From: a virus
Reading direction: 5' to 3' (one strand)
Length of the DNA: 30,750 nt
IMG/VR virus record: IMGVR_UViG_3300020451_000731
Span: 1 to 30,750 of that record
This document shows, piece by piece, positions 1 through 19,412 of the stretch. How positions within the stretch are numbered: the first letter of the stretch is position 1; the number at the start of each line of letters is the position of its first letter. Made by a program: the position numbers and the translations under genes. Below the pieces are notes generated by a model. That model saw only the letters and a program-made list of their open reading frames with translations, did not search any database and was not told the DNA's origin.

Positions 1-1756
1 CTGACAACCCTACTGCATCAGCTAATGCTTTTTGTTGATGTGGCATCATTGCATTAAACTTATCTACACCTCCTACCTGCTTTAATACATCCTCAACTGC
101 TTCACCTGTTTTACCCATCATTGCAAGTTGTCTAGCTCTACCAAAATCAAGATTTCTTCCTGTGATGAGCTGTGCTTCCATTTCTTTTTCTATAGAAGTT
201 TCAAAGTCAAGTAGTGTTTTAGCTACATTAGCCATATCATCTAGAGTTAATCCCATTCTCCTTGCTTGAACTGCAGCTTTACCTAATGCTACTGCTCCAC
301 CTGAGAAATATCCTAGTGTTTCACCAGACGCTGCAGCTATATCTTTGAATGGACCTGCTGGATCTAAACCATGCTGTTCTGCTAACTGATAAGTTAAATC
401 AGCTGCATTAACTGCTGCTCCTTTAGTTAATCCTGATATAGAATCAAAATTATTAAGTACTTTAGCTGATTCTTCATCACTCAGTCCTATACCTAATTTT
501 AATTGAGACATAGTTTCAACTAAGTCACCTGATACAAATCCAACTCGACCAAATTGTTCACTTAAAGCGACTGTAGCATCTACAGCACTTTCTAAACTTT
601 GAGCAAACCCTTCACCTGCTCTAGAAAACTCACTTTCGATTGATTTTGCATGTTTTAATATATTTCTTTGATACTCTCCAGCACCTGCTAATTTTTTGTT
701 AACTCGATCTTGCTCTTCTGCTAACTGGTTTGCATACTGACGCATAGTTTCATAACGTTTAATACCTAACGCTAATAGTCCAGTAAATAAGGTTAAAGGA
801 TTAGTAACAATATCTTTAATAGTACTCATTACTTGACCGAATGCAGTATTCATACCAAATACAGTATCTTGAATCTCTTTATTTATTTTTTCTATTTGTT
901 GATTTTTCTGCTCTAGTTTAGATAAAGTTTGATATTGCAGATTCATATCACCTAAAGCAGCTAAACGAAGTTCTTGTTCTTGTGTTAATCCTTGAACTTG
1001 CTGTTCTTGTAAATATGCCATCTCAGCTTGAATCTCTCTTATTTTATCCATGTGAGGAATTTCTTCCCGTCTAAATAAAGTAATTTTGGCAGATTCTCTT
1101 GCAGCTGTTACTAAAGATGAATTGATAGTACCTCTATCGGTAATGGTTTGTTCTAATAAAGCTTTGTCTTCGATAGATAAATCTAAACTTCGACGTTTTT
1201 GAGCTGCTATTTCTTTTTCCATACTAGCAGCAATTTGTAATTTAGAAGCGTAATCTTTTTGCTCTCCATACAAATTAGACAAAGTATTTTTTTGATCATG
1301 TATGCTCTGGCCTATCTGGGCCATTACAGTTTCTTCTTCTTGAAGTTTGTTTAGATAATCTTGTTTAGAATCATTAAGTTTTTGTTGTGCTAGGTCTATT
1401 TTTTCTGTTTGATCAGCAGTTTCTTTTGTTATACGAGTATTTTCTTGACCTACTTTTTTTAGTTCTTCATCGAATTTAAGTATTTCTTCTTGAGTTCTTC
1501 TTCTTTGTGTATAATGTACACTGGCAAGTTTTTCGTCTTCTAGCTGTTGTCGTTTTATATCTCGTTCTTGCTCTAATTGTGCAATACGCTCTCGGCCCGC
1601 TATCAATTGTTCTTGCGAGTTTCTGTAACTTTCAGATTGAAGTTTGTTTAGTGCTTGTTGGTCAATTTGTTGCTGTTTATAAGCTTTTCCTGATTCTGAA
1701 TCAACTTTACCGACACCTACAACCCTTCTTCTATTACTTTTATTAGGTTTAGCCAT
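1..1756 (-). CDS. Tail tape measure protein, N-terminal part (runs off the left edge)
   Basis: An uninterrupted minus-strand frame of 585 codons runs from an ATG at 1756 to the left edge without a stop. It begins MAKPNKSNRRRVVGVG and an AGAGG stands about 13 bases upstream of the start. Residues from about 25 to 300 are a Gln/Glu/Lys-rich coiled coil. A short hydrophobic stretch follows near residue 315 (DIVTNPLTLFTGLLALGIK). After it comes a small-residue-rich helical region (LGIGLSDEESAKVLNNF, FSGGAVALGKAAVQARRMG). That layout, and the position after tube and hub genes, are typical of tape measure proteins, which fix tail length inside the tube and help deliver DNA. It does not look like T4 gp29 by eye; it resembles tape measures of other marine myoviruses. 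The C-terminus and any lytic domain lie outside the window. The family call is inferred from architecture and context. Confidence 0.72.
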   Translation of the reverse strand, partial: MAKPNKSNRRRVVGVGKVDSESGKAYKQQQIDQQALNKLQSESYRNSQEQLIAGRERIAQLEQERDIKRQQLEDEKLASVHYTQRRRTQEEILKFDEELKKVGQENTRITKETADQTEKIDLAQQKLNDSKQDYLNKLQEEETVMAQIGQSIHDQKNTLSNLYGEQKDYASKLQIAASMEKEIAAQKRRSLDLSIEDKALLEQTITDRGTINSSLVTAARESAKITLFRREEIPHMDKIREIQAEMAYLQEQQVQGLTQEQELRLAALGDMNLQYQTLSKLEQKNQQIEKINKEIQDTVFGMNTAFGQVMSTIKDIVTNPLTLFTGLLALGIKRYETMRQYANQLAEEQDRVNKKLAGAGEYQRNILKHAKSIESEFSRAGEGFAQSLESAVDATVALSEQFGRVGFVSGDLVETMSQLKLGIGLSDEESAKVLNNFDSISGLTKGAAVNAADLTYQLAEQHGLDPAGPFKDIAAASGETLGYFSGGAVALGKAAVQARRMGLTLDDMANVAKTLLDFETSIEKEMEAQLITGRNLDFGRARQLAMMGKTGEAVEDVLKQVGGVDKFNAMMPHQQKALADAVGLS

Positions 1757-2071: not shown

Positions 2072-2350
2072 TTACTGTTTTGGCGTTACAGGAGGTGAAA
2101 ATACCTCTGACTTACCCTGCGTTTTATTATCCATTTTCTTTTGATCTTCTTGCTGTTTCTCAAAGACTTTTTGGATCTGTTTTAGATAGAAAGTTCGTAA
2201 GTAACGAGGCATATTATATACTTCATCATGAGTAAATCCTCCTTTACCGTAATAACATAGACTAAATATTTCTTCGTGTATTAATGGTCTATGAATCGGA
2301 GCTAGGCCAAAAAAACCCGGTGTCGATTGGCATATCGACGGTCTCCTCAT
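2072..2350 (-). CDS. gp51-position baseplate hub assembly protein, overlapping the gp26 gene
   Basis: This frame runs past the end of the gp26 gene and yields about 92 residues from the ATG at 2350 (MRRPSICQSTPGFFGLAPIH). The frame stays open upstream to a TTG near 2371. The conserved-looking core is RPLIHEEIFSLCYYGKGGF followed by THDEVYNMPRYLRTFYLKQI, with a Gln/Lys-rich, probably disordered tail. In T4 the small gene 51, a baseplate hub assembly factor, directly follows gene 26, so position and size suggest the same role. Similarity to T4 gp51 itself was not established. No convincing Shine-Dalgarno precedes the ATG (only GTGG). The 62-base overlap contains a T7 run where gp26 could shift by +1 into this frame, so the protein may exist partly or only as a gp26 fusion. 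The start is therefore uncertain. Confidence 0.6.
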   Translation of the reverse strand: MRRPSICQSTPGFFGLAPIHRPLIHEEIFSLCYYGKGGFTHDEVYNMPRYLRTFYLKQIQKVFEKQQEDQKKMDNKTQGKSEVFSPPVTPKQ

Positions 2351-3092
2351 GTCCACAAGCTTCACACTCAAAATTAAACTTTGTCAATACATCTGGCGTT
2401 GAAGTTCTCATATAGTTACGTAATGCTAAAGAATCTTGTGCAAATAATTCTTCGTCTACGAACTGTCTGATTGCCTTTGTATCACGATTGCTATCTATAG
2501 CAATTATCTGATGTTTTAATCTTGTTGTGAGGTCCTTACCTGGACCTTTCTTGTTTGCAAATTTCGCTAATCCTTTTAACTCACTTTCAAGTGCTTTTTC
2601 TGACTTACCATCCATTAACTGCCAAGTAATAATTTTCTTGCTTAATGGTAATTCAAATTCAAACTCATTTGAACCTTTTTGATATGCATCGAAATCAAAT
2701 TCTTTATTATTAAGATTAGTTAAATCAATAGTTAATTTGTTAATTTCACCACATTTAGGGCAAGGAAGATCAATATCATAATCTTTACCATAACCTAAAA
2801 TTCTTGCAGCTATCATAATTGCATTCTTATCACCAACTAATACATCATTATAATCACATGGTGTTACTAATAATGCATTGATTAATGTATCAATTACTTT
2901 ACCTTGTCTAATAAGATTTGCGGAAGTTAAGATATCTTCTTCTCTAGCAGTCATGTATTTTAATTCTACCTGACCAGTAGCTAAAGGGTGGCCTTCTGGA
3001 TAGAACCACCCCTTGCTTGGAAGATCAATAAATTCGGTTGGAAATTTCTTTTTTTCTGTTTGTTTAGCCGTAACTTTAGTGTTTTCGCTCAT
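2289..3092 (-). CDS. 26: Baseplate hub protein gp26-like (T4 base plate protein family)
   Basis: A 267-residue protein beginning MSENTKVTAKQTEKKKFPTE, with an AGAGG ribosome site before the ATG. The opening FIDLPSKGWFYPEGHPLATG, then VELKYMTAREEDILTSANL, and the mid region are what I know from the T4 gp26 / T4_baseplate family, whose members help build the baseplate hub. Two CxxC pairs are visible, C111-P-K-C114 and C243-E-A-C246, which would suit a structural zinc site. The length is larger than T4 gp26 (about 208 residues). It lies between the tail tube gene and a small gp51-position gene, the expected setting. The last codons pass through GGG TTT TTT TGG at 2309-2318, a candidate slip site, and the zero frame stops six codons after TTT TTT. 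Confidence 0.8.
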   Translation of the reverse strand: MSENTKVTAKQTEKKKFPTEFIDLPSKGWFYPEGHPLATGQVELKYMTAREEDILTSANLIRQGKVIDTLINALLVTPCDYNDVLVGDKNAIMIAARILGYGKDYDIDLPCPKCGEINKLTIDLTNLNNKEFDFDAYQKGSNEFEFELPLSKKIITWQLMDGKSEKALESELKGLAKFANKKGPGKDLTTRLKHQIIAIDSNRDTKAIRQFVDEELFAQDSLALRNYMRTSTPDVLTKFNFECEACGHEETVDMPIDTGFFWPSSDS

Positions 3093-3130: not shown

Positions 3131-3619
3131 TTAGAATTGTAAGATTGCGTAGTCGTATGCAACGGTAATTGAAAGCATAAGTGCTGAATCAGTTGCCCAA
3201 TCTAAACTACCTTTTGCAGTAGATTGTACATACGCACCTTTCAATGTCCATTCTTCAACTTTGTCACCTACAGGACCTAATACATTAAAAGTAATGTCTT
3301 TTTTGTAGAAATCAGCATATCCGTCTCGACCAGTAACAGATTCGTGCGATAATCTAACCCATTCCATTACTGCTTGTGCTGCAGATGGAACAACTGGATC
3401 ATATAAATCACATGTAATGTTTCCCCAATCAGCTTTACCTTTTAGTTTTCTTTTCACGTTAATGTGATCAAGAGTTACATCACCAAAAGTAATTGATGGT
3501 CTGTCGATTTTCTTAATTAAATATGCAGGAATACCATCTATATACATGATAAACCTATTCTGCGTTTTCGGCTCAAATGCCGTGAACATTGCTTCAGTTG
3601 GGTCGATTAATTGTGCCAT
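3131..3619 (-). CDS. 19: Tail tube protein gp19
   Basis: A 162-residue protein, the same size as T4 gp19 (163). It starts MAQLIDPTEAMFTAFEPKTQ and ends with a run of beta-strand-like sequence (LMLSITVAYDYAILQF). Motifs such as NRFIMYIDGIPAYLIKKIDRP and the late WTLKGAYVQSTAKGSLDW are characteristic of the T4-like gp19 tube family. It polymerises as hexameric rings around the tape measure to form the inner tube through which DNA passes. The start has an excellent ribosome site (CGAGGAGAACAA before ATG), and the gene is the first after the motif at 3647-3660. It follows two sheath genes, matching the T4 18-19 order. The call is firm. Confidence 0.92.
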   Translation of the reverse strand: MAQLIDPTEAMFTAFEPKTQNRFIMYIDGIPAYLIKKIDRPSITFGDVTLDHINVKRKLKGKADWGNITCDLYDPVVPSAAQAVMEWVRLSHESVTGRDGYADFYKKDITFNVLGPVGDKVEEWTLKGAYVQSTAKGSLDWATDSALMLSITVAYDYAILQF

Positions 3620-3693: not shown

Positions 3694-6600
3694 TTATTCA
3701 GGGAATACTGCTCCTGTTGGTAAAATGTTAAAGTCTAGTATAATAAATTCTGCTGACTTAGCTGGTTGCAAGAATATTTCTCCTATCATTTGATTTCTAT
3801 CAATTACATCTGGAGTATTGTTTGTAGCATCCATTATTACTTTGTATGCATAAAGACCTTGTCTTTGCTGTATACTTTCGAAATATGGATTAGCTATATT
3901 CAAGAAACGTTGTCTAGTTGCATTAGTATTATTTTCAAATACTAGATATTTAGTTGCTGATGCGATAAATTTCTTCGCTGCTATCAGTAATCTACGTACG
4001 TTAATTCTATCAAGTGCTGAAGGTTTAGCTTGTAGTGTCTTTTGACCCCAAATACAAATTCCTTCTTTGAAAGTTGCTATTGGATTAACTCTACCTTCAT
4101 ATAAATCATCTCTTTCAGCATGTGTTAATCTTGTTGGTACATCTATAGCTTCTGTTAGAATACCTCTGTTAAGACCTGCTGGAGCGAACCATTCAAATGC
4201 TACTTGATCGTTTTTAGCGATTACCCCTGCCATTACTGCTGAAGGTGGTACCCATACTGGTTTGTTTTTATCAGTATCGAGTATTTTAACCCAAGGCCAG
4301 TAAGTAGCTGTGTAGTTTGAGTCAAGTGCTTCAACTGTATTAGTTACTGTAGCGATTGTTGTTGTATCATATCCTACTGCATCCATTAAGTATAAAGCAT
4401 CTCCCCTATCTTCACAAAGATTTTTAGCGTGAGTTGTTACTGCAGAGTGTAGTCTATGATTTGGACCTGGTGTTACAACAAGGTTTATATCATATTCATC
4501 TGGATTAGATACAGCATTAAGAGCTCTCTTATATGCTTTTGTTCCATCCGTTTCTGCAGTTGATAAATCAAATCCTAACATGTTAGTTGAAAGAATATTA
4601 GTATCACGTGCAATATAACGTGCTGGATTTAATCCGTCAAATCCTCCTTGGAATGGTACTATAAATTTCTTTGTTGAAAGGTTTATAGTTGAACCATCTG
4701 GTGTGATTGCTGTTTCATTACCACTATTAAGTGATGCTGATGGGTGTTGGAAGCAATGTGATAAATTAAAGTGTTTGTTATTTCCTACTCCATATCCTGT
4801 AGCGTTAGCATCAGGTAATGGTAATAAGTAATTATAATTATCTTTATCTAAATAGTCAAATCCATAGTGAATCTTCTTATTATATACATTGTCTGCAACT
4901 TGTGTCTTCTTAATGTAATGACCTGTTGTTGCTCCATCTTTTCTTTGTCGTTTATCGTTAGTATGTCCAACAAATGATGCTGTTGGTAATGTACCACAAC
5001 CTGTTACAATTGGTTGATATAATGCTTCAAATCCAAAAGGAACTAGATCAGGTGCTGTACCTTGATCTTTTACCTCTTGCGGAACTTCTACATATACATG
5101 TCTTGATAAGTTAGGATAATCTCCAAATACAGTTACTTTACCAAGTTCACTAATTTGTTGATATCTATCACCAATTACTCTTGCGATAAAGTTAGGTGAA
5201 TTTGGATCTAAAGTTAAATTATTCCATTGTTCTACTATATGTGGTCTCATATCTGAATCACCAGATTTAGCATATGGATTATTAGCACCGTGAATAGTAC
5301 CATCAGTATCTACTCTTCGTATTTGTACTGAGAATGAACCGTAATCACTTCCTGCTACTGATCCTGGATCTTTAATATTTGATATTGCAACTTTATATTG
5401 ATAGTTAGTTGACGATCCGTGTGATCTTGTATGGAATTTGAATAATCTAGTTGTTTTTGCACTTCCATAAGAGCCAATATTTTGAGATACTATCCAAGGC
5501 GTTCTTGCTTCAAATGCATCTTTTGATGAATATGCGTAAGATTGATCATTTACTGCTACAGTTGTTGATATGTATAAGTTTGGATCAGCAGCATATGATT
5601 TAGATGCATAGTTGTTAAATAGCATGTAATTATATACTGGTTTTACTCTATCCTTAGGTGTTTTACCAAATACTTTACCAATCCACTCTTCAGACGTTGT
5701 ATCTATAGAACCTGAGTAAGATGTTTGTGCAGATAATATGTTACCTGAATCTGTATGAGCTCCATTTGCAAATGTAGTAGTGCTTGAGTACGAATTAGTT
5801 CCACCATCACCTTTAAGGAATAGTGTAAATGCTGTACCCTCTATACGACCATAAGATGCAGAAGGATTATGTTGTGTTGCATCAACTTCATCTAACAAAG
5901 AGAATGATGCAGTTTCTGCTCCAACTCCTGTTAAAGATGTATTAAGAAATCCTGCATCTAGGTCTCTAGTACCATAAACCTTTCCTGCAAATCTATTAAT
6001 AATTTTAATAGTATTTAAGTTTGATGTAGTACTGTATCCTGATCCTGAACTAGAGCCTGACATTTCCATGGATGCACTAAATAGTGTTAATCCTGATGTT
6101 CCACTGGCAGTAATAGAGTTAATTGCAGTTCTAATTTGAGATGCGATAGATGCAGATATACCTGCTACATTAGTTCCTCCGTGTGTATGACCGGCAGCTC
6201 CTGCTTCACCTTTTGTTAATTCAATAGATTTATTAAATGTTGTACTTAAAGAAGTAAATGCTGATGCAACTGTTGGTTGAGGTCCACCTGCTTGAGTAAA
6301 TCCTCCTCCATCAAAAGCTGAACCTGAGAAGTAGAATCCATAGTTAAGGTTTGTTCCATCACCTGCTGGATCTATTGTTGATAATACAAAATATGAACCA
6401 GAGAATGAACCAGATATATCTGAAGAAGATCCTGTTAAGTGCATATAAATTACTTGTTGAGTAGAATCATTTAATGTTGCATTAAATGTTGCTGCTGGAT
6501 GTACTTGTGTAGGGTGTAATACTCCCCATGTAAGTCCTGTACCACCTGCTGAATTCAACTGTGATGATGTAAGCTCATTAGTTTGTAATGTTATTAATGA

Positions 6601-6876
6601 AGGTGAGTACCCGCTTAAACCTAACGTTCTAACAACCGTTACTCTACCTGCACTCTTCAAATAAGCTTCAACTGTATAAGGTACATAACTGTCTAGCGTT
6701 TTTGGACCAAATGTTGCTTCAAATTCTTTGAATGATTCAATAATTACTGGTTCGAAAGCAGGTCCTTTTACTGTTGGACCAACTATTGCCGCTCCAATTT
6801 CAGCAACTCCTGCTGGTAAGAACGATAAATCTCTTTCACGTGTAAATACACCTGGGCTAACTATTTTTTCTGCCAT
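3694..6876 (-). CDS. 18: Tail sheath protein gp18, second and longer paralog
   Basis: A 1060-residue contractile sheath subunit starting MAEKIVSPGVFTRERDLSFL. The C-terminal 400 residues carry the sheath hallmarks: NPDEYDINLVVTPGPNHRLH, then CEDRGDALYLMDAVGYD, YPWVKILD-like (YWPWVKILDTDKNKPVWVPP), GRVNPIATF, ICIWGQKTLQ and FIILDFNILPTGAVFPE. It is far longer than T4 gp18 (659). Compared with the upstream sheath, almost all of the extra length lies between about residue 95 and the shared KVFGKTPKDR near residue 398. That region is rich in Ser, Gly and Thr (SGSSSDISGSFSGSYF) and probably forms an outward-facing domain. The ribosome site CTAGGAG precedes the ATG. Only 31 bases separate it from the first sheath, with no block motif, so the two are co-transcribed. 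Confidence 0.93.
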   Translation of the reverse strand: MAEKIVSPGVFTRERDLSFLPAGVAEIGAAIVGPTVKGPAFEPVIIESFKEFEATFGPKTLDSYVPYTVEAYLKSAGRVTVVRTLGLSGYSPSLITLQTNELTSSQLNSAGGTGLTWGVLHPTQVHPAATFNATLNDSTQQVIYMHLTGSSSDISGSFSGSYFVLSTIDPAGDGTNLNYGFYFSGSAFDGGGFTQAGGPQPTVASAFTSLSTTFNKSIELTKGEAGAAGHTHGGTNVAGISASIASQIRTAINSITASGTSGLTLFSASMEMSGSSSGSGYSTTSNLNTIKIINRFAGKVYGTRDLDAGFLNTSLTGVGAETASFSLLDEVDATQHNPSASYGRIEGTAFTLFLKGDGGTNSYSSTTTFANGAHTDSGNILSAQTSYSGSIDTTSEEWIGKVFGKTPKDRVKPVYNYMLFNNYASKSYAADPNLYISTTVAVNDQSYAYSSKDAFEARTPWIVSQNIGSYGSAKTTRLFKFHTRSHGSSTNYQYKVAISNIKDPGSVAGSDYGSFSVQIRRVDTDGTIHGANNPYAKSGDSDMRPHIVEQWNNLTLDPNSPNFIARVIGDRYQQISELGKVTVFGDYPNLSRHVYVEVPQEVKDQGTAPDLVPFGFEALYQPIVTGCGTLPTASFVGHTNDKRQRKDGATTGHYIKKTQVADNVYNKKIHYGFDYLDKDNYNYLLPLPDANATGYGVGNNKHFNLSHCFQHPSASLNSGNETAITPDGSTINLSTKKFIVPFQGGFDGLNPARYIARDTNILSTNMLGFDLSTAETDGTKAYKRALNAVSNPDEYDINLVVTPGPNHRLHSAVTTHAKNLCEDRGDALYLMDAVGYDTTTIATVTNTVEALDSNYTATYWPWVKILDTDKNKPVWVPPSAVMAGVIAKNDQVAFEWFAPAGLNRGILTEAIDVPTRLTHAERDDLYEGRVNPIATFKEGICIWGQKTLQAKPSALDRINVRRLLIAAKKFIASATKYLVFENNTNATRQRFLNIANPYFESIQQRQGLYAYKVIMDATNNTPDVIDRNQMIGEIFLQPAKSAEFIILDFNILPTGAVFPE

Positions 6877-6907: not shown

Positions 6908-9484
6908 CTATTCAGGGAATGCTGCACCTGTAGGTAAGATGTTGAAGTCTAATATAATGAATTCAGCTGCTTTAGCTGGTTGCAAGAATAACTCACCGAT
7001 CATTTGATTTCTATCGATTACGTCTGGTGTATTATTCGTTGCATCCATTATTACCTTAAATGCATATAATCCTTGTCTTTGTTGTACTGATTCTAAATAA
7101 GGGTTAACTATGTTTAAGAATCTATTTCTTGTTGCGTTTGTATTGTTTTCAAATACTAGATATTTAGTAGCTGATGCAATAAATTTCTTAACAGCAATTA
7201 ATAATCTTCTTACGTTTACTCTGTCTAAAGCAGATGGTTTACCTTGAAGTGTTTTTTGACCCCAGATACATACACCTTGACCAGGGAATGTAGCAATTGG
7301 GTTTACTCTACCTTCATATAAATCATCTCTCTCTTCGTGAGTTACTCTATCTGCAGTTTCAATCACTTCAGTTAAAGATCCACGATTTAATCCAGCTGGT
7401 GCAAACCATTCAAATGCTACTTGATCATTATATGCTATTGCTCCAGGTACCACTACTGATGGTGGAACCCATACTGGTTTGTTTTTGTCTGTATCTAATA
7501 TTTTTACCCATGGGTAATAAGTTGCTGCATAATTTGAATCAAATGCTTTTACTGTATTAGTAACTGTATTGATTGAATCACCATATGCTGCTGCATCCAT
7601 TACAAAGAATGCGTCACCACGATCCTCACAAGTATTTTTAGCATGTGTAGTAACTACGGAGTGTAATCTATGATTTGCTCCAGGTGTTACCATTAAATTA
7701 ATATCATATTCATCAGGATTAGATACTGCGTTTATTGCTCTTTTGTATGCTTTACCACCATCAGATTCTGCTGTAGATATATCATATCCTTGCATATTCG
7801 TAGCTGATATATTTGTGTCTAATGCTACAAATCTAGCAGGATTGAATCCATCAGCACCACCTTGCATTGGTACTATAAACTTTTTAGTTGATAAGTTAAT
7901 AGTTGAACCACCTGGTGATATAGTTGAACCATCCGATGCTGTTTCTAATGAAGCAGATGGGTGTTGTTTCTCATTACTCAAGTTAAATGCAGCATTATTA
8001 TTTGCTGAACTATTAGTACTTGGTATTGGTCTTAAGAAGTTGTGATTATCTGCGTCTGCATAATCGAATCCGTAATAAACATTTTTATTATATACGTTGT
8101 CTAAAATTTGTGTCTTTTTAGATGTAGTTGAATTTTTCTGACCTATAATAGATGATGAAGGTGAACCTGTGAAGCTTGAATCAGATGATGGTACGCAATC
8201 TTTAATTGCTGCATATCCGAAAGGAACTAAATCAGGAGATGTACCTTTGTCTTTAACTTCTTCTGGAACTTCTACCCATATATGACGAGATAGATTAGCA
8301 TAGTCACCTTTTATAGTTACCTTACCATTTGCGTCAATTGCTTGATACTTGTCACCAATAACTCTCGCAATAAAGTTTGGAGAATCTGGATCTAAAGTTA
8401 AATTATTCCATTGTTCTATAATATCTGGTCGTCTATCAGAATCACCTGATGCAGGAAACGGTGATAATTGTGCGTTAATTGTTCCATCTACGTCAACTCG
8501 TCTTAATCTTATAGAGAATGAACCGTAATCACTTCCTGCTATAGATCCTGCTGCTCTAATATTATCAATTGCAACCTTAAATTCAAAACTAGTTGCAGTA
8601 CCATGAGATCTTCTATGAATCTTAAATAAGTTTGTTGTCTTTCCACCAATTTTTTGTGAAGTAATAAAAGGTGTTCTTGCTTCTAATTCATCTTTGTTAG
8701 TGCTATATGCAGATGCAAAAGCAATTGTTCTACGACCTCTTACTGTTGCTTTAGTAATACCAGTTGTAACTGATAATGCATTTGATCGTGAAGCATGATT
8801 ACCAAACCAGTTTAGTAAATATACCGGCTTATTTCTATCTTTTGGAGTTTTACCAAATACTTTAGTTGCATAATTATCAGAAGCTGGATTTAATGACATT
8901 GAATATGCTGTAGATCCTGTTTTAACTGATGTCAAATGCTCTGCTGCAGTTGCTGGTGATACTGTATGTCCTGTAATTCCAACTGCTGTATTAGTAGCTG
9001 CATTGTAGTCTGCTGCACCACCAGATAAGAATAATAAGAATCCTGAACCTGTCCAGTCGTTAGCTGATGCAGATAGTGCTGTAAATTTTGCATTAGAGTC
9101 AACTTGAGAAGGATGTAATACACCTACAGTTCTTGATACACCAGTACCTGTTACTGTATTTGTTCCTGCTGGATAAGTTGTACTAACTATTTCAAGTATT
9201 GATTCATCTGCTGTATACCCATTTAATCCTAATACTCTTACAATAGTTACTCTACCTGCACTCTTTAGATACTGCTCAACCGTATATGGTACGTAGCTCT
9301 CAAGAGTTTTCGGTCCGAATACTTGCTCGAATTCTTTGAATGATTCTATAATAGTTGGTTCGAATGCTGGACCTTTTACAGTTGGTCCAATAATTGCCGC
9401 ACCTATCTCTCCGATAGCTGCTGGTAAGAAAGATAAGTCTCTTTCTCTTGTAAATACACCTGGACTGACGATTTTTTCTGCCAT
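6908..9484 (-). CDS. 18: Tail sheath protein gp18, first paralog
   Basis: An 858-residue contractile sheath subunit that starts with the same MAEKIVSPGVFTRERDLSFL as its neighbour. It shares the core and C-terminal motifs, including NPDEYDINLMVTPGANHRLH, CEDRGDAFFVMDAAAYG, WVKILDTDKNKPVWVPPS, VCIWGQKTLQGKP and FIILDFNILPTGAAFPE. The sheath wraps the gp19 tube and contracts on infection. The shared KVFGKTPKDR occurs near residue 205, against about 398 in the second copy. The DNA of the conserved regions differs at many third positions, so the duplication is not recent. TAGGAG precedes the ATG. It lies 20 bases after a coiled-coil gene in the block led by the motif near 9844. Which paralog is the main sheath cannot be told from sequence. 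Confidence 0.94.
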   Translation of the reverse strand: MAEKIVSPGVFTRERDLSFLPAAIGEIGAAIIGPTVKGPAFEPTIIESFKEFEQVFGPKTLESYVPYTVEQYLKSAGRVTIVRVLGLNGYTADESILEIVSTTYPAGTNTVTGTGVSRTVGVLHPSQVDSNAKFTALSASANDWTGSGFLLFLSGGAADYNAATNTAVGITGHTVSPATAAEHLTSVKTGSTAYSMSLNPASDNYATKVFGKTPKDRNKPVYLLNWFGNHASRSNALSVTTGITKATVRGRRTIAFASAYSTNKDELEARTPFITSQKIGGKTTNLFKIHRRSHGTATSFEFKVAIDNIRAAGSIAGSDYGSFSIRLRRVDVDGTINAQLSPFPASGDSDRRPDIIEQWNNLTLDPDSPNFIARVIGDKYQAIDANGKVTIKGDYANLSRHIWVEVPEEVKDKGTSPDLVPFGYAAIKDCVPSSDSSFTGSPSSSIIGQKNSTTSKKTQILDNVYNKNVYYGFDYADADNHNFLRPIPSTNSSANNNAAFNLSNEKQHPSASLETASDGSTISPGGSTINLSTKKFIVPMQGGADGFNPARFVALDTNISATNMQGYDISTAESDGGKAYKRAINAVSNPDEYDINLMVTPGANHRLHSVVTTHAKNTCEDRGDAFFVMDAAAYGDSINTVTNTVKAFDSNYAATYYPWVKILDTDKNKPVWVPPSVVVPGAIAYNDQVAFEWFAPAGLNRGSLTEVIETADRVTHEERDDLYEGRVNPIATFPGQGVCIWGQKTLQGKPSALDRVNVRRLLIAVKKFIASATKYLVFENNTNATRNRFLNIVNPYLESVQQRQGLYAFKVIMDATNNTPDVIDRNQMIGELFLQPAKAAEFIILDFNILPTGAAFPE

Positions 9485-11627: not shown

Positions 11628-14600
11628 TTATTCGTTTTGTCCAGTTCCCCAGCTAACTTCAGCTGAATTTCTTTCTCGGTATTGAACTTCTACACCAAGT
11701 ACGCGCACGTCTTCAGTATAATTATCAGTAGCGTGAGTTGGATTTCTTCTTAATCGGAAATTAGTAAGTGAACCAGTAGCCCAAGTTGATGTTGCGTTTG
11801 CAACTGTTATAGTAACTGGATCAGAAATTATTAGTTTTTCATTATCTGCTACATCACCAATCGATGAAGAGAATTCGTTCCAAGTATTCTGTACTGTGTC
11901 TAGATCTTGTTTATGAGTAATTTCACTTGCATTCATTCCAAAAATTGCAAATCTAGAAGTAAGTGTTCCAGTAGATGAATGATAATAGACTCTAGCTTTA
12001 ACTGTACCTCTATCCCATTCGTATGGCATTGCCATTTGGAAGTTTGCATGTTCAGCTGCTGATGCACCAAATGCAAGGTAGTCATACGAATTATATGTTC
12101 CATCTGTGTATTCTTCAGTTGCTGCTTCTGCTCCATTTGTTGTAGAAGGCGTCATACCAGCAGCTGCTACGTAGAATGATCTATAATTACGAGATGAAAT
12201 TGATCCACTTGATTTTATATTACCATCTATAATTGCATCACCTGAACCGGAAATTCGACCTGATACTTGTAGTACATTATCAGTAGCAGCAAATTTAGTT
12301 GCAGTATAAGTTCCAGGTTTTTGTAAGAATAACCCTTCTGCAGCTAAAGTAGCTCCCATTGTATCATCATACAACCAAGCTGTTCCTCCTGAGCCATCTC
12401 TGAATACAAATCCGTTTTGAGCCGATGAATTACCGATATAATAATCACCTGAAGTTGAAGAATCCGCATGAGATGCATTTTTAATTACAAGTGAGACTGA
12501 GTCACCGAAGAATTCAGCAAGTGGTGTACCTACGTCTGTATCTTGAATTCCTGGAGCTCCTGGATTTGGTGCAGCTACAATCTTAAGGAATCCAAATGAA
12601 CCAGTTCCACTTGCACTTATATTTCCAGAAGCTGTTATATGAGATAAAGTTGAAATATTACCACTTGAACTTATATTTCCAGTTACTTGTAATTTTTGTG
12701 TTGGGCTAGTTGTTCCTATACCAACATTGCCAGAATCAAGTTTCATAGTTACATTAGCATCTGTTGCATTGTAAACTTCTAAACCAGTCCCTGACGATTG
12801 TCTTAAGTTATATGTATCATACGCCCCACCTCTTGCAACAGTAATATCTTTTGCTAATACTGTAGCACTTGAGCTTATATTACCTGAAGCTGTTACGTTT
12901 CCTTTTATTGTATGAGTTGAAGTTGGACCTCCTAGTGTTAATGAACCAGTAGCATATACATCTTTTGCATATAATGAACCAGATGTCCATAATCCTTTAC
13001 TTGCACTAATATGGCTTCCAGATACAGAACCTGATACCATTAGATCATTAGCAACAAATAATTCTGTTACATGTATTGATGAACCGGATATTGATCCAGT
13101 TACTTTTAATTTTCCAGTTACATTTACATCACCTGATGCTGTTACGTGACCTCGTAATCTTATTATGTGTGATAAATCGCTTGTTCCACCTAAATTAGTT
13201 TCTAAACCATTTACTGTTAACCCATCACCACCAACGGTTTCGTGAGTATGAATAACTACATGCTCAACATTTATTCTACCAAATGAACCAGTACCTTCTT
13301 TTCCAGATCCAGTAACATTAATATTTAAGAAACTAGCTGATGTTGCTGATAATGAGCTAGCAGAGAAGTGCCCGCTCATACTTATATTTCCAGAAGCTGT
13401 TATATGTCCTGCTGTTCCATTTATTACAACAGTATTAGTTCCGAAAGTAGCTAATCCACCGATAGTCAGCGTTGAAGTTGCACTACCACTTATATTTCCA
13501 GATGCTGTTATGTGTCCAGGCGCTACAGATGAACCAACAGATAAACTTCCTGATGGTAGGTAAGCATTACCTAGATAATCTATTCTAAATCTTGTTCTAC
13601 GTTGTGAATAACTTGTAGATGCTTCGTTAATTGCTATTAAATCTGTACCAGATCCTGATCCGTTAGCAGTCATTCTTTCAAATACATATTGAGTAGCGCT
13701 TCTAGCTCGACCTATAAATGCTAGACCTGGTTGAGTAAATGAATCGTCATAATAAACCATTTGAGCGTTAGGATCTGCAGTTGGTGCACTAGTTTTATCG
13801 TAATCTGAACGGAATATTAAGTTTGGATCTGATCCTCCATTAGCTCCTATTGTTAACGAATTATCATCATCGTGATCTATTCGAACAGCTGAACTTGATA
13901 AATTTAATTGGAATTGTGACTGAACTATCATTCTACCAGCGTTAGATGATTGACCTGTATCTGGTTGAAGTGTAGATATAAAGTTTTGTTCAGTATTAGA
14001 AGCCATATTTTGGCTAAAATCTATTTTATCCGTATATAACGCAGAACCTGAACCTATTCTCACATTTCCACTTGCACTAATCTCTCCAGACGCAGTTATA
14101 TTTCCAGTTAGAGTTAAACCAGTAGGAGAATTACCTTCTGATAATGTGTTTGTGTATATTATACCACTTGCGCTTATATTATTTGAAGCAGTTACATTTC
14201 CTATGAATGATGTTCTACCACCTAGTGAATGAGTACCAAGTAAATTACTTGCAGATATATTTCCTGAAGATGTAATATGTCTTACACTAATATCACCGTG
14301 TAAATACAAGTTTCCACTTGCACTAATCGAACCTGAAATTGTTAATGCTTTAGTAGGGTTACTTGTACGGATTCCAACCGCTCCAACTTGCTGGATTGCT
14401 GGCCATCCTTCGTTAATTAAAGCCCCACCTGATACAAATAGTAAATGCTCATCATTATGAGGGTTAGATGATGCATCATATGCACTCTCTACCCTGAAGT
14501 TCATTAATTTTGCACCTTCATTTACAATTACTTCATTATTTGCATCAAGACTTCCTGATATACCTAGTGTATAACCTCCAGCTGAAAATTCTGAAGTATT

Positions 14601-17600
14601 TTTACTTAACTTCCAGTGTGTATCTGTGTCATTATTATGATAAACATAAGAATATACATTAACATAGTCTGATGAACCGCTTCCTACACCAAGATTACCT
14701 GCAACATCTAATTCATAAGTTGGAGATATAGTGTTTATACCTACCATAGCATTTTGAGTTCCTGGATTATTGTTTCCAACACGTCTACCTACAAAGTAAT
14801 GTGGGCCTGAACCAGTAACTCGAAGTGAACCAGTCATTTGTTGCTGATCATCGTTGGAATTACCCATTTTGTTAGAACCAGATGAGAATGCAATAGATGC
14901 TGATACGAATTCTGTGTGGAATTCTTGTGCTATTACAATATCTGATACTATCAAGTTACCTGTTATATACATATTTCCGCGGAAATTAGTAGTTCCAGAT
15001 ACTTCTAGAGCTCTCATTTGTCTATATGTACCAGGTGTGTTTAATGTACCAGACATAACTGTTGTACCGATAGTTTTTAATGTATACCCATCGTGACCAG
15101 GTCCATTAACATGACTACCTGAGAATAATGCAGATCCAGTAAAGTTAGCTGTACCGGATACTTCTAAAGTTGCGTTAGGTGCTGTAATTCCACCCATACC
15201 AACTGTAAATCTTTCTCCTGTCTGTCCACCAAATACAGCTGAATTGTTTGCTGTTACTGAGGCTTGAGTACCAATTGCATATGCATTATTAATACCAGCT
15301 CCTGCTGATGAACCAGATCCTATTAAAATATTTTTATCGTTAGTAGTTACTGCTTTACCTGCAGCTGAACCGAGTATAATATTATCATCACCAGAAGTGA
15401 TTTTAGCCGATGCTGATGCACCCATAATAATATTTTGATGTCCTGTTATTACACCATCTCTACCTGCATCATCACCAATAATAACATTTCTTGCTAACGA
15501 GGTCGCATTTTCAGCAGCATTTGTTCCGATAATAACATTATCAACACCCGTCACTACCCCCTCGTAACCAGCTTGATATCCCATAACAACATTTCTTGCT
15601 GCTGTATCAGCTGCATCACGTAATGCTCTAAATCCTATAGCAATATTATTGTGTGCTCCAGCAGCATCTTTTAATGCTAAATACCCTATTGCGATATTAG
15701 CATCTCCAGTTGTTACACCTGCTGACATTGCTAGTTGACCTATAGCAATATTATGGTCACCGGTAGTAAGTTCGTCTGCTGCTTGCATCCCAATCGCAAC
15801 ATTTCCAAATCCTGTAGTTAAATCTTCTAATGCGTAAGAACCTATACCAATATTATCACCAGTAGATGGTCCTGATACTGCAACACCTTTACCCATTGAT
15901 CCTGAACCAATAGCTATGTTAGCATTACCAGTAGTATGTTTTCTTGCCGCCATATGACCGATAGCAATACTTCCACTAGCAGCAGTCGCATCTTCTAATG
16001 TCGATACTCCTATAGCAACATTTCTATAACCAGTTACTACTCCTTTCATCATTGAACCGGAACCAATTGCAATATTATTGTAACCAGAAGTTAAGTTATC
16101 TAATGTTTTTGTACCTATTCCTATATTATCATGACCAGTAATGTCACCTGTACGTAAAGCTGATTCCCCAATAGCTATATTAGCAGTATTATCAGATACT
16201 GACCCGCTCATTGCATTAAATCCTATTGCTATTGCAAATTCACCTGTTTTTCCACCTTTTAATGATCCTGACCCAATAGCTATATTATATCTACCAGATG
16301 TAAGATCAGTTAATGCTTCTTGACCAATTGCTATATTTCCAACACCTGTTACTGTTCCATCAGATATTGAACCTGAACCAATAGCAATGTTAGAATCACC
16401 AGTAGTAATGTTTTCTCCTGCTGAAGGTCCAACTGCTATATTATCCGTTCCTGAAGTTAGATTTAGTAGTGTGCGAGCTCCTAATCCTGTATTATCATGA
16501 CCAGAAACAAGACCTTCTTTCATAGAATAGTGACCAATAGATATATTACGTGCTATTGCTGCATTAGTTGCATTACTAGTATATAATGCATGTGTACCTA
16601 TAGCTATATTATTTGCATGTGCTGTAATATTAAATCCAGCATTGTCTCCTATAAGAACATTAGTTTGGCCAGCTGTTAAATCCGCTCCTGCAAAACGTCC
16701 TATTGCAACATTTCTATAACCAGTTACTACTCCAGATTGTGCAGCTCCTTTACCTATAAAGACATTATCATAACCTGAAGTCATGTTAGCTGCAGAAGAT
16801 GCTCCTACTACAATATTATCGTCACCAGATAAATCACCAGTGTTAACTGCTTTATATCCAATTACAACGTTAAAATCAGCATCATCAGCTGATGCTTTTA
16901 ATGTTTCAAATCCAATTGCTACGTTTCCAATATTAGTTGTAATAGATGCAGCTGATCCTGAACCTATTGCTATATTATTTGAACCTGCTGTTATATCTTC
17001 GAGAGCGAAGCTACCAACAGCTATGTTATCTCTTCCAGTTACTGTTCCTATACCCATAGAACCAGAACCAACTGCTATGTTTGATATACCAGTTGTTAAG
17101 TTAGAAGCTGCTTTTTTACCTATTGCTGTATTATCATTACCTGATGTTGCGTCTTCAAGTGCTTGAGGGCCAATTCCTATATTGTAATGACCTGTTAATA
17201 TTCCTGTTCCTAATACATTAGTACCAACTGCTACATTTTCATATCCTGTCTGTGACCCGCTCAATGCATTTAGACCGATTCCAACGTTTTGATAACCTGT
17301 TGTTATACCCCGTAATGAATATGCTCCAGCTGCAACATTAAAGTGCCCAGTTGTCGCAACTCCATGACCCATTGAACCTGAACCAATAGCTACGTTTCCT
17401 CCAGCTGCTGTATGTGCCTTACCAGCTTCATGGCCTATGAAAACACTTCCACTTGCAGTCGTTATTCCATTACCTACATTTTGCCCAATCCCTATATTAT
17501 TATTACCAGTAAGAGCTCCTGCAGCTAATGCATTTGTACCAATACCTACATTATCAAGACCAGTTGTTAATTGAGAAAGTGCACTTCTTCCTACCCCAAT

Positions 17601-19412
17601 ATTATCAGCACCTGAGGTCAATTTAGCATATACCTCGTACCCTAGACCGATATTATAGTTACCTGTAACTAAAGTTGGAGACATTGCATTATTACCTATA
17701 GCGATATTGTAACTTGCTGCTTGTGAAGCAGATAAAGCAAGTACACCGATTGCTATATTAGCTATTCCCGTTCTTTGCCCTCGTAATGTATTTTGTCCAA
17801 GTGCTACATTACCGGTTCCTGATGTTAAAGTAGTGAGTGCTATATCCCCGATACCTATATTCATGTCTCCAGTTGATAATGATCTTAAGACTTGATTACC
17901 AATACCGATATTAGATAATGATGTAGTTGATGTTTGATTACCAGTTGTATTTCCGAAATATAAATTTGTTGTTGTTCCAGAACCTGATACATATATAGTT
18001 TTTTGATTATTAAAGTATATACCATTCATTCCATCTGAATCGTGGAATGTTCCAGCTGATATATCTGTTGATCTACCTTGAATTATATTAATAGAACCAC
18101 TTACGTTAAATTCTTGTGGATATGTGTATTTATCTTGGCTTGGTAATTGTATACCAACCTTTCCATATGGATCTATACGAAGTGCTTCGAAGTATGTACT
18201 TCCTGCACCAAATGTATTCTTACCAAATTTACTTAAATTATGACGAAATACTAATGAACCACTTAATGCATTTCCAGTTCCTGTTGATGCACTAGCAACT
18301 GCTATTTCCCATCTGTCTTGCCCACTTTCAAAGTATAAGGAAGCAGATGTAGCAGCTGTTGCTGATTCTATTTTAACTCTTGTATTAGTTGAACCACTTA
18401 TTACTAAATTTTCATCTACTTTAGAATTTGATCCTGATGGTACCCCTATTCCAACATTATATTTATCATTAGTTGTAAAGAATACTGATTTAGATACTGC
18501 TGATATAACAAATACATCATCTCCAATACCTGAATCTCGGAATCTTACTGTATCACTTGCTGATACGTGGGTACTTAACCATGGATAGCCCCATGCCCCA
18601 TATACGAGTTTACCTTTACCATATTGTAATGCATCGTGACCAGGGTCTTCAATAGTTAATAGATGTGATAAATTTATTGCTCTATCTTGTCCAGGCTCAT
18701 CATAAGTACCTGGTTTCATACTCCCTGTTACACCGAGTCCAATTCCGTTTAAGAAATAAGAATCAGAACCAGATTGAAATATACTACCAGTAACTTGCAT
18801 AGTATCGTTGAAGTCACCACCAAACTTGGTTGAACCACTAGTATAGATTATAGATGATGAAACGTGTTCAGTATGAAATTCTTGAGCAAAGACAGTATCT
18901 TCTACTATAAGTGAACCAGATATTACTGCATTTCCATAGACATCTAATGCTGCATTTTGACCTCCAAATCTAGGAACATTATATTTACCTCTAATCATAC
19001 CACGAGTAACTCGTGCTGGTTTTTGATCTTCTATACTAGGATTATCTAAATATATAAATTTAGCTTGCCCTATACTTCTAAATGATCCTTGACATGAGCC
19101 ACTAACAGTTAATGAACCTGATACCCAGGTATTACCTACTATCTTTACTTGATCTTCTGAACAATCGTCTCCTAAAAACGTAGAACCAGTTACTGATAAA
19201 TGCTCAGTTACTTGTACCCGTGCTGCTGATAAGTGCTGTAAATCTTGAATTGATCCAAGTGAAGCTTTACTTGCAGTGATACGTGTTACGTCTAGATCTT
19301 CAATACGAGATCCGGTACCATCATATATACGGTGGTTAGAATCGCTATACTGAACTATAGCTTTATACGTATTTTTTATTTTTCTGCTACTTAAATCACC
19401 TGGTGTGGCCAT
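11628..19412 (-). CDS. Giant tail fibre protein with about 50 NIAIG-type repeats
   Basis: A 2594-residue open frame starting MATPGDLSSRKIKNTYKAIV, with a TAGGG ribosome site. Residues 1-500 mix SGS/TGS-rich beta segments. Residues about 501-1395 consist of some 50 copies of a 17-18 residue unit, consensus N-[IV]-[AG]-[IV]-G-xx-[AS]-[LM]-xxxx-T-[TS]-G-xx. This resembles the beta-roll heads of trimeric autotransporter adhesins but with a different period. Residues about 1690-2275 contain many ITASGNISASG-like units typical of phage fibre shafts. The last 180 residues are non-repetitive and look globular, a likely receptor-binding tip; I see no S74 peptidase/chaperone domain. It lies after gp15 and before a LamG-like gene. 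A trimeric host-recognition fibre is the best reading, inferred from repeats and context. Confidence 0.82.
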   Translation of the reverse strand: MATPGDLSSRKIKNTYKAIVQYSDSNHRIYDGTGSRIEDLDVTRITASKASLGSIQDLQHLSAARVQVTEHLSVTGSTFLGDDCSEDQVKIVGNTWVSGSLTVSGSCQGSFRSIGQAKFIYLDNPSIEDQKPARVTRGMIRGKYNVPRFGGQNAALDVYGNAVISGSLIVEDTVFAQEFHTEHVSSSIIYTSGSTKFGGDFNDTMQVTGSIFQSGSDSYFLNGIGLGVTGSMKPGTYDEPGQDRAINLSHLLTIEDPGHDALQYGKGKLVYGAWGYPWLSTHVSASDTVRFRDSGIGDDVFVISAVSKSVFFTTNDKYNVGIGVPSGSNSKVDENLVISGSTNTRVKIESATAATSASLYFESGQDRWEIAVASASTGTGNALSGSLVFRHNLSKFGKNTFGAGSTYFEALRIDPYGKVGIQLPSQDKYTYPQEFNVSGSINIIQGRSTDISAGTFHDSDGMNGIYFNNQKTIYVSGSGTTTNLYFGNTTGNQTSTTSLSNIGIGNQVLRSLSTGDMNIGIGDIALTTLTSGTGNVALGQNTLRGQRTGIANIAIGVLALSASQAASYNIAIGNNAMSPTLVTGNYNIGLGYEVYAKLTSGADNIGVGRSALSQLTTGLDNVGIGTNALAAGALTGNNNIGIGQNVGNGITTASGSVFIGHEAGKAHTAAGGNVAIGSGSMGHGVATTGHFNVAAGAYSLRGITTGYQNVGIGLNALSGSQTGYENVAVGTNVLGTGILTGHYNIGIGPQALEDATSGNDNTAIGKKAASNLTTGISNIAVGSGSMGIGTVTGRDNIAVGSFALEDITAGSNNIAIGSGSAASITTNIGNVAIGFETLKASADDADFNVVIGYKAVNTGDLSGDDNIVVGASSAANMTSGYDNVFIGKGAAQSGVVTGYRNVAIGRFAGADLTAGQTNVLIGDNAGFNITAHANNIAIGTHALYTSNATNAAIARNISIGHYSMKEGLVSGHDNTGLGARTLLNLTSGTDNIAVGPSAGENITTGDSNIAIGSGSISDGTVTGVGNIAIGQEALTDLTSGRYNIAIGSGSLKGGKTGEFAIAIGFNAMSGSVSDNTANIAIGESALRTGDITGHDNIGIGTKTLDNLTSGYNNIAIGSGSMMKGVVTGYRNVAIGVSTLEDATAASGSIAIGHMAARKHTTGNANIAIGSGSMGKGVAVSGPSTGDNIGIGSYALEDLTTGFGNVAIGMQAADELTTGDHNIAIGQLAMSAGVTTGDANIAIGYLALKDAAGAHNNIAIGFRALRDAADTAARNVVMGYQAGYEGVVTGVDNVIIGTNAAENATSLARNVIIGDDAGRDGVITGHQNIIMGASASAKITSGDDNIILGSAAGKAVTTNDKNILIGSGSSAGAGINNAYAIGTQASVTANNSAVFGGQTGERFTVGMGGITAPNATLEVSGTANFTGSALFSGSHVNGPGHDGYTLKTIGTTVMSGTLNTPGTYRQMRALEVSGTTNFRGNMYITGNLIVSDIVIAQEFHTEFVSASIAFSSGSNKMGNSNDDQQQMTGSLRVTGSGPHYFVGRRVGNNNPGTQNAMVGINTISPTYELDVAGNLGVGSGSSDYVNVYSYVYHNNDTDTHWKLSKNTSEFSAGGYTLGISGSLDANNEVIVNEGAKLMNFRVESAYDASSNPHNDEHLLFVSGGALINEGWPAIQQVGAVGIRTSNPTKALTISGSISASGNLYLHGDISVRHITSSGNISASNLLGTHSLGGRTSFIGNVTASNNISASGIIYTNTLSEGNSPTGLTLTGNITASGEISASGNVRIGSGSALYTDKIDFSQNMASNTEQNFISTLQPDTGQSSNAGRMIVQSQFQLNLSSSAVRIDHDDDNSLTIGANGGSDPNLIFRSDYDKTSAPTADPNAQMVYYDDSFTQPGLAFIGRARSATQYVFERMTANGSGSGTDLIAINEASTSYSQRRTRFRIDYLGNAYLPSGSLSVGSSVAPGHITASGNISGSATSTLTIGGLATFGTNTVVINGTAGHITASGNISMSGHFSASSLSATSASFLNINVTGSGKEGTGSFGRINVEHVVIHTHETVGGDGLTVNGLETNLGGTSDLSHIIRLRGHVTASGDVNVTGKLKVTGSISGSSIHVTELFVANDLMVSGSVSGSHISASKGLWTSGSLYAKDVYATGSLTLGGPTSTHTIKGNVTASGNISSSATVLAKDITVARGGAYDTYNLRQSSGTGLEVYNATDANVTMKLDSGNVGIGTTSPTQKLQVTGNISSSGNISTLSHITASGNISASGTGSFGFLKIVAAPNPGAPGIQDTDVGTPLAEFFGDSVSLVIKNASHADSSTSGDYYIGNSSAQNGFVFRDGSGGTAWLYDDTMGATLAAEGLFLQKPGTYTATKFAATDNVLQVSGRISGSGDAIIDGNIKSSGSISSRNYRSFYVAAAGMTPSTTNGAEAATEEYTDGTYNSYDYLAFGASAAEHANFQMAMPYEWDRGTVKARVYYHSSTGTLTSRFAIFGMNASEITHKQDLDTVQNTWNEFSSSIGDVADNEKLIISDPVTITVANATSTWATGSLTNFRLRRNPTHATDNYTEDVRVLGVEVQYRERNSAEVSWGTGQNE
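15227..17912 (-). repeat. Array of about 50 coding repeats of 51-54 bases in the fibre gene
   Basis: Within the fibre gene the coding unit N-I-A-I-G plus 12-13 residues recurs roughly 50 times in a row, mostly with 17 or 18 codons per unit. Copies such as IAIGSGSMGxGxVTG return many times. Units differ by substitutions and synonymous codons, so this is an old, diverged protein repeat and not a recent DNA amplification. Count and borders are by eye. Confidence 0.85.

What the first reader, a model, noticed from the sequence alone, without database searches (positions are those of the whole stretch)
2289..2350. Possible +1 frameshift at a T7 run joining gp26 to the overlapping gp51-position frame
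The gp26 frame ends through GGG TTT TTT TGG CCT and stops six codons after TTT TTT. The overlapping downstream frame reads the same run as GGT TTT TTT GGC, so skipping one T after TTT TTT gives a smooth ...DTGFF-GLAPIHRPLIHEE... fusion of about 339 residues. The downstream frame has only a weak ribosome site for its own ATG at 2350, and its distinctive sequence begins right after the slip site. Overlapping tail-assembly genes joined by frameshifting are known in many phages (G/GT type). I do not know of a report for the 26/51 pair.
Basis: partly seen in the sequence, partly recalled or inferred. Interest (0 to 1): 0.6.

Follow-up and report, generated by a model that had tools for sequence, protein, structure and literature searches.

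The report
Frameshifted tail-chaperone gene in T4-like phages
A contractile-tailed phage distantly related to T4 most likely makes two versions of a tail-building helper protein from one gene, because some ribosomes skip one base at a conserved run of T's; over a hundred distinct relatives keep this signal, T4 itself uses two separate genes instead, and one branch slips the other way.

Summary
The gp26-like gene (3092-2289) ends ...TTT TTT TGG CCT..., and the overlapping +1 frame (to 2072) encodes the gp51-like C domain. Of 251 loci analysed (many re-fetch the same contigs), 229 keep the C domain in the +1 frame. Of 127 distinct +1 representatives, 51 have no possible start codon for it. TTT TTT TGG CCT is nearly fixed even at silent sites, and the reading frame under selection switches there. 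An AGGAG-like element and an RNA hairpin just upstream are also under silent-site selection. The gene lies between tail tube and tape measure and belongs to the T4 gp26/gp51 family, described as tail assembly chaperones. Best reading: a programmed +1 ribosomal frameshift giving a short and a long chaperone, as in lambda G/GT. One nested clade instead has a classical -1 heptamer (A_AAT_TTC), and a cyanophage, HTVC008M and Aeromonas phage 65.2 have T_TTT_TTN (-1) at the same gene. T4 carries two separate genes on opposite strands. It is a new variant of a known kind. No protein-level proof was possible, and the key paper (Vladimirov 2022) was not held, so overlap with it is possible.

The parts
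2289..3092 (-). gp26-like ORF, short tail assembly chaperone (TAC-N), 267 aa, stop TAG at 2291-2289
   Evidence: PF12322 E 3e-13, phrog_150 E 7e-17; N-domain model pLDDT 88, matches gp26 family in BFVD
2343..2348 (-). SD-like element GAGGAG, about 27 nt 5' of the slip codons
   Evidence: GAG 121: GAA 62 at -42..-33 versus 130: 626 elsewhere; anti-SD pairing peak
2322..2339 (-). Hairpin GTCGAT-ATGCCA-ATCGAC just 5' of the slip site
   Evidence: 53 lineages: MFE -4.97 versus -2.85 under a synonymous-codon null, Fisher p 2.7e-14; control windows null
2310..2315 (-). Slip codons TTT TTT
   Evidence: TTT in 49/50 and 51/51 representatives versus 85% elsewhere; positions -6..-1 near invariant in 127
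2304..2309 (-). TGG CCT: slow A-site codon TGG and dual-coded CCT
   Evidence: CCT 50/50 versus 42% elsewhere
2072..2308 (-). gp51-like C domain in the +1 frame (78 codons and stop), reached by skipping T2309; fusion 339 aa
   Evidence: Open in all relatives with a closed end (65-105 codons), +1-frame third-position substitutions
3131..3619 (-). Context: tail tube protein gp19
   Evidence: PF06841 E 7e-7, phrog_4542 E 1e-25
2..1756 (-). Context: coiled-coil ORF in tape-measure position, 585 aa, runs off the contig end
   Evidence: Position and sequence; annotated tape measure protein at the same place in phage immuto

Best explanation
This is a programmed +1 ribosomal frameshift in the tail assembly chaperone gene of a phage distantly related to T4. 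Most ribosomes read gp26 to its stop and make the short chaperone (267 aa). A fraction slip forward one base with tRNA-Phe on UUU in the P site while UGG waits in the A site, and read on in the +1 frame to make a 339-aa protein with an added gp51-like domain. By analogy with lambda, the short form coats the tape measure protein and the long form also recruits tube subunits. An upstream SD-like element and hairpin probably raise the slip rate. Shown here: the frame relation, silent-site conservation, lack of start codons, coding selection in both frames, selection on SD-like element and hairpin. Inferred: the slip itself, its efficiency, the tRNA involved and the chaperone function.
For: 229 of 251 loci have the C domain in +1. 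Slip codons TTT TTT TGG CCT are near invariant at silent sites. Substitution phase switches at the site in 58 non-overlapping pairs. 51 of 127 representatives have no start codon for the C domain and only 12 have one with an SD-like tetramer. SD-like element and hairpin under silent-site selection. Gene order tube - chaperone - tape measure. gp26/gp51 family membership. Best solved-structure matches of the N domain are YqbN and the HK97 chaperone, at modest Z 6.2 and 5.3.
Against: No protein or ribosome data. Linear distance SD to slip (about 27 nt) does not fit the 3-nt rule for +1 unless the hairpin folds out. The rare TTT CTA TGG form does not re-pair well in +1 if CTA is the P-site codon. 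Structural similarity to known chaperones is weak (Foldseek E above 1). Function is taken from related families.
Confidence: 0.88

Rival explanations
1. Two ordinary overlapping genes: gp51 starts by itself (for example at ATG 2350) through translational coupling.
For: Some loci, the window included, have an in-frame ATG upstream of the C domain (39 of 127); the AGGAG element could serve an internal start.
Against: 51 of 127 representatives have no ATG, GTG or TTG there; only 12 have one preceded by an SD-like tetramer. The +1-frame stop is often 2-29 nt upstream. No conserved N-terminus upstream of FF. It does not explain fixed TTT TTT codons.
Confidence: 0.05
2. Transcriptional slippage: RNA polymerase drops a U in the U7 run, and the edited mRNA is read normally.
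For: A T7 run is present in most members.
Against: 42 or so loci keep the +1 relation with TTT CTT TGG or TTT CTA TGG, and 3 with TTC TTT TGG, where no run exceeds 4 T.
Confidence: 0.05
3. Sequencing error or decayed gene: the two frames were once one gene.
For: None beyond the homopolymer.
Against: The same frame relation occurs in 229 loci and in the complete genomes of isolated phages immuto and Mel-JY01. Both frames are under coding selection.
Confidence: 0.005

Closest known systems
Lambda G/GT-type tail assembly chaperones (Xu, Hendrix and Duda 2004; reviewed in PMC5009743)
   Different: Lambda and most others use -1 at a heptamer; here it is +1 at UUU_UGG, in the unrelated-by-sequence gp26/gp51 family.
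T4 gp26 and gp51 (Vladimirov, Gautam and Davidson 2022, title only; PF12322, phrog_150)
   Same: Same protein families; T4 gp51 is a gp26-like domain plus the C domain, equal in layout to the fusion.
   Different: T4 makes them from two separate genes on opposite strands; here one gene and a frameshift.
HF1-group haloviruses and HSTV-2 (PMC7230728, PMC5009743)
   Same: Predicted +1 frameshift between two chaperone frames in a myovirus; HF1 motif TTT-CGC also has UUU in the P site.
   Different: Archaeal viruses; different A-site codon; the papers read here describe no SD-hairpin module.
Bacterial release factor 2 (prfB) +1 frameshift
   Same: +1 slip of a pyrimidine-rich P-site codon onto UUU, with an internal SD; 37 loci of this family use CTT (TTT CTT TGG).
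   Different: Sense codon UGG, not a stop, in the A site; SD about 27 nt before the slip codons with a hairpin between, not 3 nt.
Vandenendeviridae/Andersonviridae chaperones (phage Adele, PMC12846349)
   Same: Conserved T-rich slip site in a myovirus chaperone gene whose second frame is annotated as a separate hypothetical gene.
   Different: -1 at GTTTTT; different genome group.

Membership tests
G/GT-type tail assembly chaperone | Gene lies between tail tube and tape measure | tested here: met
   gp19 tube 3619-3131 before, coiled-coil tape-measure-like ORF after; annotated tape measure in immuto
G/GT-type tail assembly chaperone | Second frame joined to the first by a frameshift near its 3' end | tested here: met
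   Comparative evidence only
G/GT-type tail assembly chaperone | Chaperone fold of the N domain | tested here: inconclusive
   YqbN Z 6.2, HK97 chaperone Z 5.3 best of 388 chains, but both modest; Foldseek E above 1
G/GT-type tail assembly chaperone | Binds tape measure and tube, absent from virion, defined product ratio | not testable with these tools
   Needs biochemistry
T4 gp26/gp51 family (PF12322, phrog_150) | Profile match of N domain | tested here: met
   PF12322 50.4 bits (cut-off 24.5); phrog_150 E 7e-17
T4 gp26/gp51 family (PF12322, phrog_150) | C domain of gp51 aligned to the +1-frame extension | tested here: inconclusive
   Fusion aligns to phrog_150 up to position 276 of 282 instead of 235, but adds only 0.3 bits
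Canonical -1 frameshift (X_XXY_YYZ) | C domain in the -1 frame after a heptamer | tested here: not met
   Window and 229 loci are +1; met only in the L054/L058/L060/L074 clade and in outer relatives
RF2-type +1 frameshift | SD 3 nt before the slip codon and stop codon in the A site | tested here: not met
   SD-like element ends about 27 nt before the slip codons with a hairpin between; the A-site codon is TGG

The most novel reading that the evidence does not exclude
The upstream module is a new kind of +1 stimulator: an internal SD whose distance to the slip codon is closed by an extruded hairpin (about 27 nt shrinking to about 3-5 nt, the +1 optimum), or a hairpin that zips up behind the ribosome and pulls the mRNA by one base, as proposed for the T4 gene 60 5' stem-loop. 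One clade of the family then changed the direction of the shift from +1 to -1 by replacing the +1 slip site with a classical heptamer.
Probability: 0.4. Interest if true: 0.75.

Novelty: new variant of a known kind. Interest (0 to 1): 0.62.

Why it matters
A standard review states that the G-GT frameshift is conserved among long-tailed phages except T4 (PMC5009743). These data suggest that T4's wider relatives do use it: +1 in this group, -1 in a cyanophage, Pelagibacter phage HTVC008M and Aeromonas phage 65.2, while T4 has two separate genes. The two-product chaperone would then be kept by three genetic routes, which makes the T4 exception testable. It also gives a natural +1 signal with a conserved SD-like element and hairpin for studying ribosome slippage, and shows that tiny annotated 'gp51' genes in some phages are probably mis-annotated.

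Tried and rejected
Independent gp51 start, transcriptional slippage and sequencing error were tested and rejected. A downstream stimulator was looked for: folding at +28..+88 is stronger than a synonymous null (-9.76 versus -7.75, p 2e-5), but no specific pseudoknot was modelled and no covariation count was made for either structure. Single-sequence hhalign of T4 gp26/gp51 to the fusion profile gave low probability; the PHROG and Pfam profiles showed the relation instead. A sequence search of the Protein Data Bank with the N-domain profile gave nothing significant. No match in plasmids. A scan of bacterial genomes for the C-domain-like Pfam DUF6760 found contractile-system loci with the two domains fused in frame or adjacent; that link is weak and was not pursued. 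[quoted passage not shown]

Full report
What is there. The region lies on the minus strand of a 30,750-base virus contig. A gp26-like ORF runs 3092-2289 (267 aa) and ends GGG TTT TTT TGG CCT AGC TCC GAT TCA TAG. The +1 frame runs open from before that point to 2072 and encodes FFGLAPIHRPLIHEEIFSLCYYGKGGFTHDEVYNMPRYLRTFYLKQIQK.... Skipping one T gives a 339-residue fusion. The gene follows two sheath-like genes and the tail tube gene gp19, and is followed by an 80-aa ORF and a long coiled-coil ORF in tape-measure position.

Conservation of the junction. A search of IMG/VR with the gp26-like protein gave 80 loci at 46-100% identity. Further scans raised the set to 253 loci, many of them repeat fetches of the same contig. 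Of the 251 that could be analysed, the C domain is in the +1 frame in 229, in the -1 frame in 11, and not placed in 11 (contig ends or very distant homologues). The slip codons are TTT TTT TGG CCT (174), TTT CTT TGG CCT (37), TTT TTT TAC CCT (5), TTT CTA TGG CCT (4), TTC TTT TGG CCT (3) and a few rarer forms. Among 51 +1 representatives (all 55 representatives have a median pairwise identity of 50%) the two Phe codons are TTT in 49/50 and 51/51 (85% TTT overall) and the Pro codon is CCT in 50/50 (42% overall). In 127 representatives all positions from -6 to +5 around the TGG codon are near invariant, including silent ones, while silent sites just upstream carry little information. CCT can be explained by the Leu codon of the +1 frame; the TTT choice is what a slip site needs.

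Two frames, one switch. In 58 non-overlapping pairs of related loci, substitutions upstream of the slip fall mostly on zero-frame third positions (1275 versus 499 and 236). Downstream they fall on +1-frame third positions (969 versus 352 and 199). The +1 frame stays open 65-105 codons in the 123 cases whose end lies on the contig, whereas the -1 frame over the same stretch contains a stop in 116 of 123.

No start for a separate gene. 51 of 127 representatives have no ATG, GTG or TTG between the nearest upstream +1-frame stop and the conserved block, and that stop lies within 35 nt in 79. Only 12 have any start preceded by an SD-like tetramer. In the window the ATG at 2350 overlaps the AGGAG element and is not conserved.

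Signals around the site. An SD-like element lies at -42..-33: glutamate codons there are GAG 121 to GAA 62, against 130 to 626 elsewhere (Fisher p 6e-37, ignoring relatedness), and predicted pairing with the anti-SD peaks there. In the window it is GAGGAG, 2348-2343. Between it and the slip codons is a hairpin (window GTCGAT-ATGCCA-ATCGAC, 2339-2322). Against sequences with randomised synonymous codons, folding energy at -33..-6 is -4.97 versus -2.85 kcal/mol over 53 lineages, 22 significant on their own (Fisher p 2.7e-14, lineages treated as independent). Three control windows show nothing. Known SD stimulators sit 3 nt (for +1) or 9-14 nt (for -1) before the slip (PMC5009743). Here the linear distance is about 27 nt, but hairpin extrusion would leave about 3-5 nt. 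Alternatively the hairpin may act like the gene 60 5' stem-loop, which is thought to pull mRNA as it zips (same source). Which of these holds is inference.

A change of direction. Loci L054, L058, L060 and L074 and their duplicates carry A_AAT_TTC, a classical -1 heptamer, with the C domain in the -1 frame. Of the six such loci examined, four have no start codon there and two (L074, L076) have only a TTG nine bases into the site. On a protein tree three representatives form one clade (SH-aLRT 100) nested among +1 members (quick method). Further out, cyanophage S-RIM8, Pelagibacter phage HTVC008M, Agrobacterium phage OLIVR6, Sinorhizobium phage phiM9, Aeromonas phage 65.2 and Pseudomonas phage Paride have T_TTT_TTN at the end of gp26 with the extension in the -1 frame. 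By eye, all but Paride have an SD-like stretch about 7-9 nt before the heptamer, close to the -1 rule (contexts). The 'gp51' of S-RIM8, HTVC008M, OLIVR6 and phiM9 is annotated as a 45-59 aa ORF, and 65.2 and Paride have none annotated there. Bacillus SP-15, Listeria LIS04, Streptococcus GXN1 and Streptomyces BRock and LuckySocke have the extension in the +1 frame with other codons, such as TTT CGT or TTT CGC; their slip codon is not settled. T4 has gp26 and gp51 as separate genes on opposite strands; both match phrog_150 and gp51 extends to its end, as a gp26-like domain plus a C domain.

What it does. [quoted passage not shown] 2022, cited in PMC12846349 and PMC10885494; not held). The AlphaFold model of the N domain (pLDDT 88) matches the gp26 family in BFVD. 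Its best solved-structure matches are YqbN (Z 6.2) and the HK97 chaperone (Z 5.3); an uncharacterised PICI protein follows at 4.3, and everything else is at 2.4 or less. These scores are modest. With gene order and two-product design, the lambda G/GT model fits: the short form binds the tape measure, the long form adds a tube-recruiting domain. That part is inference from lambda (PMC5009743).

Novelty. +1 chaperone frameshifts have been proposed for haloarchaeal myoviruses (PMC7230728, PMC5009743), and -1 ones are common. New here, as far as the held library shows, are the UUU_UGG +1 signal with its SD-like element and hairpin, its wide conservation in this T4-related group, and the direction switch within one family. 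It is a new variant of a known kind.

Noticed in passing
L262 4128-4369; L263 4101-4333; L264 4128-4360; L265 4137-4300; L268 16366-16600 (-); L087 3766-3990: gp26 of cyanophage S-RIM8, phiM9, OLIVR6, Aeromonas 65.2, Pelagibacter HTVC008M and Pseudomonas Paride ends in T_TTT_TTN with the gp51-type domain open in the -1 frame; the short annotated 'baseplate hub assembly catalyst' ORFs look like mis-annotated ends of a frameshift product.
   Followed up: partly
L269 640-1194 (-), L270, L271, L272, L273, L275: Bacterial contractile-system loci (sheath, tube, gp26-like, DUF6760) have the gp26-like and DUF6760 domains fused in frame (L270, L271, L275) or adjacent in another frame (L269, L272, L273; GGGGGAA/GGGGGAG at the junction of L269 and L273, which could be an SD or a -1 site). 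DUF6760 matches the window's C domain only weakly (E 3e-4, below cut-off).
   Followed up: partly
L081 5995-6958; L082 5917-6997: In cultured phages immuto and Mel-JY01 the chaperone's second frame is annotated as an unrelated short ORF (36 aa in immuto; TTG-started in Mel-JY01), missing the fusion.
   Followed up: yes
window 3694-6876 and 6908-9484 (-): Two tandem sheath-like genes start with nearly the same sequence (MAEKIVSPGVFTRERDLSFLPA...) but differ in length, 1060 and 858 aa.
   Followed up: no
window 11628-19412 (-): A 2594-aa ORF with many degenerate repeats of the type G..NIAIG..AL, probably a fibre or adhesin-like structural protein.
   Followed up: no
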